Shown piece by piece: positions 2,509 to 43,698 of a stretch of 64,000 nt of DNA. The stretch is from positions 33,387,927 through 33,451,926 of the forward strand of contig CM022671.1 in the NCBI GenBank assembly GCA_012295275.1. Reading direction: 5' to 3'. Numbering within the stretch: the stretch's first letter is position 1; each line of letters begins with the position of its first letter. This DNA is from Chrysomallon squamiferum (Eukaryota > Mollusca > Gastropoda > Neomphalida > Peltospiridae). Made by a program: the position numbers and the translations under genes. Below the pieces are notes generated by a model. It searched no databases. It saw only the letters and a list, made by a program, of their open reading frames with translations, and was not told the DNA's origin.

Positions 2509-2634
2509 ATGGATAATGGGACTGCGAGAGAAAATGACTTAGTAAGAAAATTATCGTCCCAGTTTAAGTCAAAAATAGTGCCATCTCAAATAATACATCA
2601 TTTTGATGTTCAACGTATTTCCAGGGAAGAGGAA
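2509..2634 (+). CDS. Exon 1: N-terminal half of a CARD
   Basis: Encodes 42 residues from MDNGTAREND to REEE, ending at donor GTTAGT (phase 0). The amphipathic helices, with LVRKL and IVPSQIIHHF, fit helices 1-3 of a death-fold CARD of the RIG-I-like type. An in-frame ATG at 2482 lies upstream of the acceptor and is probably intronic. Confidence 0.75.
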
Positions 2635-5600
2635 GTTAGTTGGTGTTTTGATTTTGTATTAAATATTAATATATTAGATCTTTCATTCTTTGAACAACAA
2701 TGACAGACAGTTTAACAAAGTCACCAATAAGAAAATTAAATAATGTTATTTAAAAAAAAGAAAAAAAAAAAAAAAAAAAATGGACAAAGAAATTTTAATT
2801 TTTATTATTATTATTTTGAATGGATTTAATTTTATAGTTTCACTTTAGGTTGGAAAGTAAAAGATATAGGGTGTGTCTAGCAGAGATTTTAAATAATTGT
2901 CAGTAAAAGTTTCAAGTCAAGGAGGATTTGAATAGTTTCATGAGAACCCTATAATTTCATAACCAAAAACATACTGATTTGTAACCAAGTAATAATTAGT
3001 TAGATATTAAAGTTTTAAAATGTAAATTAATTATGTTATTACAATCTCAAAAATGTTCATTAAGCAAAATACCTAATCAGTTTATGTTTTAAATTATATT
3101 ATTATTATTAATTTTTTTTTTTTTTGCTTAGGAATTAATATTAGCAGAAGAAACAAATAAAGGACCAATGGCAGCAGCTTATTTATTGCTGAAACATCTT
3201 GCACAAAAATATGACTGGTTTAACAACTTACTGAGAACACTCAGACGTGACGACGTCCGGTTGCGTCACGTAGCACATACATTTGAAGAAATTAAAAGTA
3301 TTGTTCAATTTCAGTTTTAACATGTCTTCATGTGAACTAACAAAAGAACTTTACAAATATAAATACTGCATGGGACTGTGTTTATGTTTATTGATATATT
3401 TTTAAATTAATAGTTCTTGGTTGCAAAACTTGATTTATTTATTTATATGTATGTGTATGTGTGTGTGTGTATGAGAGAGAGAGAGAGAGAGAGAGAGAGA
3501 GAGAGAGAGAGAGAGAGAGAGAGAGAGAGAGAGAGAGAGATTAGCAGCAACAAATTTGTAATATTTTTTTTTTTCTCTAGAAATTAAAAAGATCATAGCT
3601 TGGTGTTTGTTAAAAAAGTGATTGGCCATCACCTGCAGTAAAATTAGGAGGATTGATCCTGGAGCATGTCATTGCTACCCTGTGATTAACTAAGTCATGG
3701 AAACGTTTTAATAAATTAATTTGACTGTTTCACACAAACTGACTACAAAATTTACAAGAAAGTTGTTCATATGTGATGCATTGTTGAATTTATAAAGGAT
3801 TTGTAGATATGTGTGGCCTTATTGTCCTTATCTGTTCATTGTTAGAAAATTCCTTTTTGTTATCCAGCTTATGAAGTGTGTGTGTGTGTGTGTGTTTGTT
3901 TATAAATCTCTATAATTTGAAATTCATTTATTCTGAATTTTATTTATTTTTAATGTTTGTTGTCATTTTTTGTAGGACAAGTGGATAATTACTGGAACAG
4001 TCTGCCGCCAGAAAATCCTCATTTTGTTTCAGACATAAATCAGACTACAGTTAACGAATTTAAATTTGGCAAGCCAAAAAGTATGTTCTATTTACAAAGA
4101 AAACGAAGAAAATAATAATTAATTTAATTTTAATTGAATTCCTGAAACTGAGCTATGATATCCTGGGTGTGACAGATATGGATAAGATAAATGAATGGCT
4201 TAAATTAATCTCTTTATAATATCCAATACATATTGATACAGTATTTGCCTGATCAGCATTGTCAGTACTCCTTACCACATCTCCTGGATTATTACAGTCA
4301 GTATTTATACCAGTATAGGTATGTGTGTATTATTTACATATGTATGTTTATATTTATTAGAAAACAATTGATGAAAACTAATTGATTAATTTAAATTCAG
4401 ACTGAATTAATTGATATGGTATGTAATACAAGCCTTTCAGGTTCTTCATGAAAAATAAAAATAAAAAGTTAAAGTTTTGTTCTCTTTCTCATACGTTTTT
4501 CATTCTCCCTCCCACATTTGTATTATGTCTGTATTTAAAAATGTGTGTATGTGTTTTAGGTGATTATGTCACAGATGTAGGTCATTCAGGAAGGCCATAT
4601 TTAAGAAAAATTGAAACTGCACAAAAAGGGGAAGCTTCCATGTATGTTGATGCCAAAAGTGCTGATAACAAGCCAGATAAGGTAAAAATAAATGTTTCAT
4701 TATTATCCCAATCTTTGTGATTGATGCATAAAATCTGAACTGTAAGTAAATATTAAAAATGGAAACATACAGTATTCAGCATTTTCTGATTTCTTGTGCA
4801 AATTGATTTAGAGAAGTGGGTTGTTTGTTTTATAACATGCTAACACCATTACAGGACACCTGGCAAAGCAACACACTAAGGACATTTCACACAGAACCAG
4901 TTAAAAAACCTATTAACAGCAATCCACAGCATACATGGAGAGCATGCGACTTATGGTGCCTATTACCTTAAAACAGAATCAGAATATTTTCTCTTTATTA
5001 TGAATAGTATGTCTATAAGTGTGTGCATGAAAATTATCTCTTCCTGCTAAAAAGTAAGAATGGTGTGCAGAACTGAGGTGTCAGATTTTTTCTTTCCCTT
5101 GTTACATAAAATCATTTCACATAGAATTAATATTATGATGCTGTCCATTATTCATGATATTATTATAAAAATATTCAAAAGCACATTTAAAGAAAGTGAA
5201 TTCAATCCTTTTGTTTACTTTTCAGAGTGAATTAAAAGATAAAATACTAGAATTTTTAAAAACTAATCCAGGACCACAGGAAACAATAAAAATTGCAAAA
5301 GCCTGTGGTTATAAATCACGTTCAGATGTGAATCCCGTAATTTATAGCCTAGAGAAAGAGGGTCTTCTCCAGAAATGTACTGACCAACCTCCCTCCTGGC
5401 AGTACATCAATATGAGTATTGTAGACAGGGTAGAAAGATAAGAAATAAAATAAAATTACACATCCACTTTTTTTCTTTTTTTTTTTTGTGTGGGGTGAAT
5501 GGGCAGAGAAATAAGCATCAAATTAAAAAGTTGTTTAATCTTTCTGATCTTTGTTTAAACTGGTAAATGATCAAGAAATAGAAACCAATTTCTATACTGT

Positions 5601-42600: not shown

Positions 42601-43698
42601 CCAACAGCAAAATTTATTGAAGAAACAATTGGCACTGTTGAAGACTTAATAGTGGAATGCTACAGTGTTGTGAATATTGAAAATATTGATACAGAGTTTG
42701 GCAAGGCTTTGTTTTGGTACCATTCTCTTTTCAAAAGCCATTCTTCCCATCTTGAAAACATGTTCCTTGATGATGAGGTTTCATCAAGAAGACTGAAAAT
42801 TGCAGCCTTGAAACTGAAATATTTGTCAAACTGTAGAGGAACATGTAGTGTATTTGAAGGCAGTTCTGTGACAAAGGAAGATCTTAAGAAGCTGGTTCAC
42901 TGGTATGAGCAGAACTTCAAAGATGCTATAAGCTATGGAGAAGCTAACAAGAGGCAGCTTGATGGTGATTATAAAGAGTGGATGTTTGCAATTCGTAATC
43001 AGGAATTTGTCTATAATTACTCAGTGGAAAAGGTGTTGCAGTTTGTACGAGATTGGCATAAACAGGTGAAAAGTCCAACATCCATCTTTTATCTTTTCAT
43101 TTGCAAAAGTCTTGTTGGCTTTGGAACAAAATCTCAAAAAGGTATCAGTGAGACTTTGGTAGAAGCTCAGCTCTTAAAGAGTGAATTACAGAATTTAAGC
43201 AAATCTGTTCTCAGGCCACGATTCCCCCATGAATGGCTGGGAAAAGATCAAAATGGAATAAAATGCCTAATTTCAAACAACAGAATTATTGATGCAGGAC
43301 ATATGAAAGGTGATTCTTCTTTGTTGGCCATTTGCAAGGGAACAATATGTCATCCTAACAAGAATCACCTGAGTGGGTACATTGATCTTGATCTTGGAGA
43401 CAATTCTGTTGCAGTAAAGACATTTTACATCCCAATTAGAGCTGAACTTCATGGCGCCAGATATGCTGGAAAAAGAGTTCAGTTCCATTTGGCTTTTTCT
43501 CTCGTTCATGGATATGAAGCTTTTGCTGTGACACTTCTGAAGAAATACCCTTGTTCTGCCTGTCAGCTAAAGATAGAAATTCCAAAAGAGGAAGAATCTG
43601 CTGACTGTTGTTGTGGAACTGTTGTCAAACGAACAGACTCACCAGTGGAAGAAGACACACACAGCATGGAACTGAACATGAATGAAGAACTCAAGTAA
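36587..43698 (+). CDS. RHIM-motif SAMD9-like protein (3 coding exons, 1671 aa)
   Basis: Exons: 36587-36650, 36915-37037 and 38870-43698, all junctions phase 1. The protein starts MAENDEESQ after a short 5' UTR. Residues 42-50 read LQVGGNNSI, a full match to the RHIM core pattern (I/V/L)Q(V/I/L)GxxNx(I/L/M). Then come a 37-residue perfect repeat, a basic patch (KKQRRKANKKEKK), an AlbA_2-like region (about 276-419), a SIR2-like region (471-670), a P-loop NTPase (GGGGTT at 795-800), TPR-like repeats (about 1120-1350), an OB-fold (about 1513-1623) and a cysteine knuckle (about 1624-1646). It has no SAM domain or CARD. It is collinear with the CARD-SAMD9-like paralogue through the whole core and is uninterrupted. 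Predicted to be a cytosolic STAND-type immune effector that could co-assemble through the RHIM. Possible poly(A) signal at 44285. Confidence 0.87.
36915..37037 (+). CDS. RHIM-SAMD9-like exon 2: RHIM-type motif
   Basis: Acceptor TTACTTACAG, donor AAAG/GTATAT, phase 1 to 1. The codons at 36974-37000 give LQVGGNNSI. The exon aligns without gaps to exon 4 of the CARD-SAMD9-like gene around this point, and only this copy has the Q-x-G and Asn of a RHIM. Confidence 0.82.
37190..37760 (-). mobile_element. Fragment of a non-LTR retrotransposon (RNase H region)
   Basis: The minus strand around 37511-37570 encodes LQWIPAGNEKADLLAK, the 'W-P-H/A-G-x-GNE-AD-LAK' signature of retroelement RNase H. Frames are broken. 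It lies in intron 2 of the RHIM-SAMD9-like gene. Limits are approximate. Confidence 0.7.
37884..38627 (+). mobile_element. Tigger/pogo-like DNA transposon, internally deleted
   Basis: Terminal inverted repeats CAGTGGTACCTTGAGTTACA and its near-complement at 38607-38627 are flanked by TA target duplications (37882-37883, 38628-38629). Inside, about 38130-38390, a frameshifted remnant encodes MSIELKLEFIEKHERGV and VNMARQYKLSNFSICTIL. This is the CENP-B/Tigger helix-turn-helix; the catalytic domain is absent. Confidence 0.85.
38732..38802. repeat. (CT)n microsatellite
   Basis: Seventy-one bases of CT, followed by AATCATAAAATTAGAACC and the bases after it, which also occur next to the GA array of tandem unit 3 (about 24250). 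Confidence 0.95.
38870..43698 (+). CDS. RHIM-SAMD9-like exon 3: SAMD9 core
   Basis: One 4.8 kb exon, acceptor TTTTTTCAG, stop TAA at 43696-43698. It is open throughout. Landmarks: KKTKFRDVYGKP (shared start), FMQDVVSIWNTP and FIVLGVECQ (AlbA_2-like), VPWVSVYDFDKY and GTQWCCMRGLRE (SIR2-like), FHAPGGGGTTMAQRILWEL (P-loop), FQAHLGRFYAHCRPDED (TPR-like), AICKGTICHPNK and SGYIDLDLGDN (OB-fold). Confidence 0.9.
39172..39393 (+). repeat. Perfect 111-bp tandem duplication inside the coding exon
   Basis: Two identical 37-codon copies, 39172-39282 and 39283-39393, each from KCTEDKGEK to VKQMSK. The duplication is in frame and sits in the variable linker before AlbA_2. Absence of any substitution implies a very recent event or a polymorphic VNTR. 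Confidence 0.95.

What the first reader, a model, noticed from the sequence alone, without database searches (positions are those of the whole stretch)
2509..43698. A possible Z-nucleic-acid sensor/effector locus: CARD-Z-alpha-SH2 next to CARD-SAMD9-like and RHIM-SAMD9-like genes
Seen: three same-strand genes in 41 kb carrying Z-alpha, two CARDs, a RHIM-type core and two SAMD9 chassis. Known: vertebrate ZBP1 joins Z-alpha to RHIMs for necroptosis; CARDs join RIG-I-like receptors to their adaptor; SAMD9/SAMD9L are antiviral effectors. Inferred: in this animal the parts are split over neighbouring genes that could assemble by CARD-CARD or RHIM contacts, with Z-DNA/Z-RNA as trigger and SAMD9-like STAND NTPases as output. 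I know of no description of such a locus.
Basis: partly seen in the sequence, partly recalled or inferred. Interest (0 to 1): 0.92.

Follow-up and report, generated by a model that had tools for sequence, protein, structure and literature searches.

The report
Snail CARD–Z-alpha and RHIM–SAMD9 immune locus
A snail genome carries an array of genes for proteins that should grip left-handed (Z) DNA or RNA, directly beside what look like its only two SAMD9-like defence genes, one of which carries a RHIM amyloid tag, which suggests a snail counterpart of the human ZBP1 virus alarm with its parts spread over neighbouring genes.

Summary
Gene 1 encodes a CARD_2 (3e-13) and a Z-alpha domain (5e-8) with the Z-contact residues. 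Its SH2 is weak and lacks the usual arginine. Genes 2 and 3 are SAMD9 relatives. Gene 3 is intact: RHIM, LOTUS-like winged helix, Schlafen/AlbA fold, P-loop with the SAMD9 signature GGT. A profile of mollusc N-termini retrieves RIPK1 and RIPK3 RHIM fibrils from the PDB. Gene 2 has a CARD and a decayed RHIM, and its frame is broken as assembled. Outside the window, gene 1 is the last of about five tandem CARD–Z-alpha units over 48 kb. As far as the genome searches reach, these units and a probable ADAR are the only Z-alpha genes, and genes 2 and 3 the only SAMD9-like genes. In one pair of units the CARD exons diverge faster than their introns, hinting at an arms race. Most likely: an immune locus of ZBP1-like sensors plus SAMD9-type effectors; direct wiring about 25%.

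The parts
1..1056 (+). 3' part of the neighbouring tandem unit D (Z-alpha exon 158-360 with a 1-nt frame shift, Tyr exon near 752), cut by a gap
   Evidence: 99% identical to 5069-6124; CARD_2 exons of unit D lie just upstream on the same contig
1057..1256 (.). 200-N assembly gap between units D and E
2509..2634 (+). Gene 1 (unit E) exon 1: start codon and first half of CARD_2
3132..3297 (+). Gene 1 exon 2: second half of CARD_2
3976..4080 (+). Gene 1 exon 3, linker
   Evidence: splice sites and phase; conserved in units B, C, D
4560..4681 (+). Gene 1 exon 4, linker
   Evidence: conserved in units C, D
5226..5429 (+). Gene 1 exon 5: Z-alpha domain; N, Y, PP and W of the Z contact kept
   Evidence: PF02295 6.3e-9; ADAR1 1.1e-7 and ZBP1 1e-4 in PDB
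5821..5876 (+). Gene 1 exon 6: acidic tail with DGYATL
6319..6418 (+). Gene 1 exon 7: tail with DVYDQL and NPEYHD
8337..8397 (+). In-phase middle exon; relative of gene 2's CARD exon with 258 bp (86 codons) missing in frame
8688..8744 (+). In-phase middle exon, relative of gene 2 exon 27518-27574
9915..10012 (+). In-phase middle exon, also in units B and C
15159..15248 (+). Gene 1, start of the SH2-like region
15671..15762 (+). SH2-like middle exon; W where FLVRES has R
   Evidence: E 0.012; residue read by eye
16651..16834 (+). SH2-like last exon with stop codon
26075..26113 (+). Gene 2 probable first coding exon (MSSKRKKKKAAAK), donor AAG|GTAAGA, phase 0
26789..27107 (+). Gene 2 CARD exon
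   Evidence: PF00619 6.1e-10; 49.5% identical to Gigantopelta P0003
27518..27574 (+). Gene 2 linker exon
27864..27980 (+). Gene 2 exon in the RHIM position, core decayed (KQLLAENMSLI against KLQVGGNNSII)
   Evidence: splicing; aligned by eye; no tetrad found
28102..32799 (+). Gene 2 SAMD9-like body; frame broken near 28325 and at about 31890-32000
   Evidence: 127 of 129 invariant columns kept
36587..36650 (+). Gene 3 exon 1 with start codon
36915..37037 (+). Gene 3 RHIM exon, core LQVGGNNSI
   Evidence: 40% identical to P0001 over this exon
38870..43698 (+). Gene 3 last exon, intact
38872..39135 (+). Gene 3 winged-helix domain, LOTUS-like fold
39478..40002 (+). Gene 3 Schlafen/AlbA_2 domain, fold of the SAMD9 tRNase
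41056..41082 (+). Gene 3 P-loop HAPGGGGTT (SAMD9-type GGT)
   Evidence: motif described in PMC5445408

Best explanation
This is a mollusc innate-immunity locus with two parts. Part one is a recently and repeatedly duplicated array of CARD_2–Z-alpha genes, some with a second Z-alpha. They work like ZBP1 but signal through a CARD instead of a RHIM: Z-alpha binds left-handed viral or stress RNA/DNA and clusters the protein, and the CARD then nucleates a CARD filament. Part two is a pair of SAMD9-family STAND proteins whose N-terminus is an assembly tag (RHIM in gene 3, CARD before a decayed RHIM in gene 2), followed by a LOTUS-like winged helix and an AlbA fold likely to bind nucleic acid. Assembly through the tag would switch on the STAND core. 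Shown by computation: domains, gene order, tandem copies, co-location of the only copies found, SAMD9 membership, RHIM family resemblance, faster change in CARD exons than in their introns for one pair of units. Inferred: Z binding, CARD/RHIM assembly, antiviral role, and that the two parts act in one pathway.
For: CARD_2 3.3e-13 and z-alpha 5e-8 in gene 1. ADAR1/ZBP1 Z-alpha hits with N, Y, PP, W aligned. Profile of 11 mollusc N-termini: the ten best of 12 listed PDB sequences are 9 RIPK1/RIPK3 chains and the partner chain of a RIPK3 entry (12kl), seven of them at E 2.1e-4 to 0.0072, three at 0.16 to 0.37. Strict RHIM core 9 times in 6,360 N-terminal residues and 0 times in 72,578 others, 0.0245 per shuffle round. 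Pfam RHIM is the third most frequent family, 6 of 30 members at E up to 0.05. SAMD9 profile to human SAMD9 3.7e-28. Four further CARD_2 copies upstream. CARD E against C: 30.5 non-synonymous, 2.5 synonymous changes; CARD exons differ more than the two introns beside them, 33 of 292 against 43 of 1146, p 2.6e-6. Genome searches: SAMD9-like only in the window, Z-alpha only in this array and in one probable ADAR. RHIM-like open frames as possible partners on C1, C3, C10.
Against: No expression or binding data. The two CARDs match different Pfam families best. No RHIM tetrad in the gene 1 model. Gene 2's frame is broken as assembled. D241 of the SAMD9 tRNase aligns with C in gene 3 and the E-F-K motif is replaced by VFYP (numbering of the chain is mine). 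No relative of gene 1 in the protein database at E up to 10. CARD_2 occurs elsewhere in the genome, 22 matches, 5 of them here, so the sensors may signal elsewhere. The Pfam RHIM hits that I saw one by one are all under the cut-off of 20 bits (17.1-18.3; 5 of 10 SAMD9-like proteins), and gene 3 is not among them. The selection signal is limited: binomial test 0.02 to 0.06; units E and D p 0.075; A and B show no excess; Z-alpha 1 is unchanged, but so are the introns beside it (391 of 391 and 536 of 544 identical), so this is no proof of constraint.
Confidence: 0.6

Rival explanations
1. Immune neighbourhood without direct wiring (overlaps with the best explanation, except for the last step). 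The CARD–Z-alpha proteins feed a RIG-I/MAVS-like CARD pathway encoded elsewhere, and the RHIM–SAMD9 protein answers to RIPK1-like RHIM proteins. The genes sit together because tandem duplication and exon exchange happened there.
For: CARD_2 matches at 17 other places; RHIM-like open frames on C1, C3 and C10; RIPK1 with a RHIM tetrad reported in zebra mussel (PMC12119088, passages); a copied segment between gene 1 and gene 2.
Against: It does not explain why the only SAMD9-like genes found lie beside the only non-ADAR Z-alpha genes found; about 2 in 10,000 for random placement, an after-the-fact estimate.
Confidence: 0.45
2. The CARD–Z-alpha copies are mainly decoys or brakes (Z-RNA buffers, or CARD caps that stop filament growth), since they carry no effector domain.
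For: The gene 1 model holds only CARD, Z-alpha, linkers and an SH2-like end; copies vary in exon content and one is cut by a gap.
Against: Adaptor-only sensors exist (ZBP1, recalled); fast CARD change between units E and C fits a sensor in conflict as well as a decoy.
Confidence: 0.2
3. Much of the array is decaying or mis-assembled, and gene 2 is a pseudogene; only gene 3 is a working gene.
For: Frame breaks in gene 2, 1-nt shift in unit D's Z-alpha, gap and near-identical copies; linker exons 3-4 of units E and C show dN 0.045 and dS 0.044, no constraint.
Against: Gene 2 keeps 127 of 129 invariant residues, against 90-100% in 16 other sequences; its breaks are few and clustered; of 6 indel columns between the two near-identical copies all are single A's, as consensus errors would give.
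Confidence: 0.25

Closest known systems
ZBP1 (vertebrate Z-nucleic-acid sensor)
   Same: Z-alpha (two in upstream unit C) joined to a self-assembly module
   Different: CARD_2 N-terminal in place of RHIMs; the RHIM sits in a neighbouring SAMD9-like gene; ZBP1 is reported to have arisen in tetrapods (PMC12119088, passages)
SAMD9/SAMD9L family, including invertebrate members with DEATH-superfamily N-termini
   Same: AlbA fold, SIR2-to-STAND region, H-x-P-G-x-G-G-T P-loop; CARD N-terminus in gene 2
   Different: RHIM plus LOTUS-like winged helix at the N-terminus of gene 3; tRNase residues not kept where placed; [quoted passage not shown]
RIG-I-like receptors and MAVS
   Same: CARD_2 type of CARD in gene 1 (that these proteins carry it is recalled)
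   Different: no helicase found; Z-alpha as nucleic-acid reader
PKZ (fish) and ADAR1
   Same: Z-alpha reader
   Different: no kinase or deaminase in the gene 1 model; the genome's probable ADAR is separate, on C9

Membership tests
Z-alpha domain | Pfam z-alpha above cut-off; N173, Y177, W195 equivalents | tested here: met
   36.2 bits against 21; N, Y, PP and W aligned with ADAR1
Z-alpha domain | binding of Z-form nucleic acid | not testable with these tools
   needs CD or EMSA
ZBP1 | RHIM in the same protein as Z-alpha | tested here: not met
   no [VIL]Q[VILC]G in the 486-aa gene 1 model; two matches in + frames of the whole array, both outside modelled exons; no Pfam RHIM at E up to 10, a test that also missed gene 3
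ZBP1 | two Z-alpha domains | tested here: inconclusive
   Z-alpha 1 and 2 follow each other in upstream unit C; only one seen in gene 1; transcripts unknown
SAMD9 family | sequence relation over the SIR2–STAND region | tested here: met
   human SAMD9 3.7e-28 with profile A3
SAMD9 family | P-loop with GGT/S in place of GKT/S and an upstream His | tested here: met
   HAPGGGGTT in genes 2 and 3
SAMD9 family | AlbA_2 / tRNase fold | tested here: met
SAMD9 family | tRNase catalytic and binding residues (E184, E196, E218, D241; K198, K214, R221) | tested here: inconclusive
   D241 aligns with C in gene 3 (chain numbering inferred); E-F-K appears replaced by VFYP (by eye); E184, E218, K214 and R221 could not be placed
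SAMD9 family | TPR array and C-terminal OB fold | not tested
   only weak TPR matches seen
RHIM | tetrad (V/I)-Q-(V/I/L/C)-G | tested here: met
   gene 3 LQVG (L in place of V/I), Gigantopelta P0001 VQIG; tetrad as given in PMC10523160; profile retrieves RIPK1/RIPK3
RHIM | same tetrad in gene 2 | tested here: not met
   QLLA at the aligned place; no tetrad in 26000-28349, three + frames
RHIM | amyloid assembly | not testable with these tools
   bench assay
CARD | Pfam above cut-off | tested here: met
   gene 1 CARD_2 49.9 bits; gene 2 CARD 39.4 bits
RIG-I-like receptor | helicase after the CARDs | tested here: not met
   no helicase among the Pfam matches of the gene 1 model
LOTUS/OST-HTH | winged-helix fold closest to LOTUS | tested here: inconclusive
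SH2 | Pfam match and FLVRES arginine | tested here: inconclusive
   16.2 bits against 21; W at the Arg place by eye; no SH2 in the PDB sequence search

The most novel reading that the evidence does not exclude
A split ZBP1-type alarm in molluscs: CARD–Z-alpha sensors, evolving fast at the CARD, directly nucleate neighbouring CARD- and RHIM-tagged SAMD9 STAND proteins. Z-RNA recognition, death-fold assembly, RHIM amyloid and a STAND effector would then form one locus-encoded pathway, invented apart from vertebrate ZBP1.
Probability: 0.25. Interest if true: 0.93.

Novelty: new variant of a known kind. Interest (0 to 1): 0.74.

Why it matters
A 2023 review says that only ADAR1, ZBP1 and PKZ carry Z-alpha in eukaryotes (PMC10523160, passages); a 2024 paper predicts further candidates in corals, algae and giant viruses (PMC11298590, passages). 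A CARD–Z-alpha array in a snail would add an animal Z-sensor with a different output. RHIM on SAMD9-like proteins in several mollusc groups offers a concrete guess at how SAMD9 proteins are switched on: by an N-terminal assembly tag that lineages swap (SAM, CARD, Pyrin, RHIM). It is directly testable in cells.

Tried and rejected
SH2 by PDB sequence search: no SH2 hit. LOTUS by sequence: no LOTUS hit in PDB, weak Egalitarian winged helix in 2 of 17 members; the fold searches then favoured LOTUS. Gene 1 as the 5' end of gene 2 (splice phases fit): set aside because gene 2 has its own likely first exon at 26075-26113 and Gigantopelta P0003 has its own short N-terminus before the CARD. A second Z-alpha in the fragment at 7240-7345: rejected, as the tryptophan frame is stopped upstream (read by eye). 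Relatives of gene 1 in other animals: none (E up to 0.001, 2900 candidates, residues 1-290, E up to 10, 790 candidates; the 414-aa query left out the middle exons). This is weak evidence, as only proteins that share 5-residue words and are of similar length are seen. RHIM tetrads in the array: two, LQLG at 33360303 and IQIG at 33368831, outside modelled exons and taken as chance. Tree of SAMD9-like bodies: gene 3 stands with P0001/P0002 (99.1/99); the place of gene 2 is unresolved (29.1/64). Profile A1 was built from sequences that I chose by their motif, so its E-values lean towards RHIM; the motif count and the Pfam scan of 30 members are less biased. The RHIM search of the genome did not list gene 3's own exon, so it misses members; its hits have E 0.37 or more, and 1 of its 14 control genomes also gave a match.

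Counts: A4 and the scan used 30 rows, the window fragment and 29 of the 52 proteins; A3 used 16 of 52, A5 17 of 52, 15 of 52. One search holds a Fisher test for units E and D with a mistyped count (12 for 11); the right one is.

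
Full report
What was checked. The window lies at G000:C7:33387927-33451926 of a 404.6-Mb genome held in 22 contigs. Protein relatives place it in Gastropoda near Gigantopelta aegis, a peltospirid snail.

Gene 1. Seven exons from 2509 to 6418, three middle exons and three last exons have AG/GT borders and matching phases. The model gives CARD_2 (3.3e-13), z-alpha (5e-8) and a sub-threshold SH2 (0.089 in the 486-aa model; 0.012 when the last 121 aa are scanned alone). 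The Z-alpha exon alone retrieves ADAR1 and ZBP1 structures, with the asparagine, tyrosine, double proline and tryptophan of the Z contact aligned. Between Z-alpha and the SH2-like end lie tyrosine motifs (DGYATL, DVYDQL), noted by eye. Which of the middle exons are used is not known.

The array. On the same contig upstream lie further units. A: CARD_2 at 33356684-33357762, Z-alpha at 33360358. B: CARD_2 at 33364311-33365353, linker, Z-alpha at 33370619. C: CARD_2 at 33373366-33374191, linkers, Z-alpha 1 at 33376145, tyrosine tail, middle exons, Z-alpha 2 at 33382600. D: CARD_2 at 33385357-33386148, linkers, Z-alpha 1 with a 1-nt shift at 33388084, then the gap. Window 2001-11268 is 96.5% identical to 33372807-33382199. 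No further copies were seen in 33280001-33330000 or 33451927-33521926, apart from about 5 kb that read N. A six-frame search for PF02295 gave 4 matches: three in this region and one in a 557-aa ORF on C9. That ORF ends in a weak start of a dsRNA-binding motif (E 0.098, under the cut-off), so I call it a probable ADAR. The search missed two Z-alpha 2 exons and the shifted exon of unit D that tblastn found, so its counts are lower bounds.

Selection. Between units E and C the CARD exons differ by 30.5 non-synonymous and 2.5 synonymous changes (dN 0.146, dS 0.042). They differ at 33 of 292 sites, and the two introns beside them at 43 of 1146 (p 2.6e-6). Against a simple story: the binomial test on synonymous changes is borderline (0.02 for 2 or fewer, 0.06 for 3 or fewer); between E and D the CARD exons differ at 11 of 291 and these introns at 22 of 1162 (p 0.075); the A and B CARDs show no excess (dN 0.193, dS 0.228); linker exons 3-4 are near neutral (dN 0.045, dS 0.044, E against C). 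Z-alpha 1 differs by no amino acid among C, D and E apart from D's shift, but the introns beside it are 98.5-100% identical between E and C as well. Recent duplication or gene conversion explains that without constraint. Diversifying selection on the CARD is the simplest reading for E against C, not a proof.

SAMD9-like pair. Gene 3 and human SAMD9 align at 1.3e-13; with a profile of 17 sequences at 3.7e-28, and only SAMD9 entries pass 0.01 in the PDB. The P-loop is HAPGGGGTT, the SAMD9 variant described by Mekhedov et al. (PMC5445408, part 1 of 4 read). A search of the whole genome with gene 3 found only the two genes of the window, 4 matches from 4 candidates. Random placement would put a 48-kb array and an 18-kb pair within 9.2 kb of each other with a chance of about 2 in 10,000, an estimate made after the fact. 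The tree sets gene 3 with P0001/P0002 and leaves gene 2 unresolved near P0003/P0004.

RHIM. The core [VIL]Q[VIL]G..N occurs in the first 120 residues of 9 of 53 proteins (52 plus gene 3) and nowhere in the remaining 72,578 residues; shuffled N-termini give 0.0245 per round. The nine span gastropods and bivalves; a protein of Liolophura, a chiton, has a relaxed form. A profile of 11 such N-termini (chosen by motif, hence biased) has RIPK1 fibrils 8ib0 and 9m6m (2e-4) and RIPK3 chains (from 1.4e-3) as best PDB hits. In the Pfam scan of 30 members RHIM is third, in 6; the hits seen singly are under Pfam's cut-off, 5 of 10 proteins, and gene 3 itself was not matched. Gene 2 has the exon but not the core. 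The other 44 of the 53 proteins lack the strict core; some of them lack the N-terminus.

Gene 2. A likely first exon (MSSKRKKKKAAAK) with donor AAG|GTAAGA precedes the CARD exon. The body keeps 127 of 129 invariant residues, yet the frame breaks near 28325 in an A-run and changes several times between about 31890 and 32000. Recent loss and consensus error are both open. The segment with the CARD exon and the next exon is shared with gene 1's middle exons, where 258 bp of the CARD are missing in frame. The two genes have thus exchanged or copied exons.

Possible partners. CARD_2 has 22 matches in the genome at E up to 0.1, 14 over the cut-off, 5 of the 22 in this array. The RHIM search gave 11 matches at E 0.37 to 7.5, two over the cut-off; five that I read are open frames with RHIM-like cores, three of them within 23 kb on C3. 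Splicing and gene context of these were not studied.

Literature. Of 6 papers holding both SAMD9 and RHIM, none has a title on such a fusion (listing only). Listings on Z-alpha in molluscs and on invertebrate RHIM gave no such locus. PMC11293857 and PMC11298590 (passages) have no occurrence of mollus-, oyster or gastropod. The searches for SAMD9 with LOTUS domain and for Chrysomallon immunity failed. The library is open-access papers only.

Reading. The genes and their co-location are solid. That they are immune genes is very likely by family. That Z-alpha binds Z-form nucleic acid is likely. That the sensor array drives the SAMD9-like proteins through CARD or RHIM contact is attractive but rests on location alone.

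Noticed in passing
11966-14868: 36-bp minisatellite, about 83 copies, in gene 1 between the middle exons and the SH2-like end; a short relative precedes Z-alpha in unit A (33359723-33360034), so it may mark where gene 1 lost its second Z-alpha.
   Followed up: partly
39172-39396: Perfect in-frame 111-bp tandem duplication (37 aa twice) in gene 3 between the winged helix and the AlbA domain.
   Followed up: no
G000 C3:1602843-1625358, C10:17476681, C1:46003606: Open frames with RHIM-like cores (TQIGNNNLM, VQFGNNNVM, IQIGNNNEM on C3; VQIGAENKL on C10; LQLGHNNHL on C1): candidate RHIM partners of gene 3.
   Followed up: partly
51445-52941 (- strand): Intact 498-aa ORF that by eye looks like an alanine-type aminotransferase; next gene beyond the immune locus.
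   Followed up: no
20101-25272: Several related repeat copies (75-83% identical) fill the space between gene 1 and gene 2.
   Followed up: no
37900-38620: By eye a pogo/Tigger-like transposon remnant inside a gene 3 intron.
   Followed up: no
L028-L033, L037, L040-L047: CARD_2 matches elsewhere, several close together on C2, C6 and C8; perhaps RIG-I-like receptors or relatives, not examined.
   Followed up: no
P0049-P0052: Bacterial and metagenome proteins matching the SAMD9-like body at E 1e-43 to 8e-32, three of the four annotated with AlbA_2.
   Followed up: no
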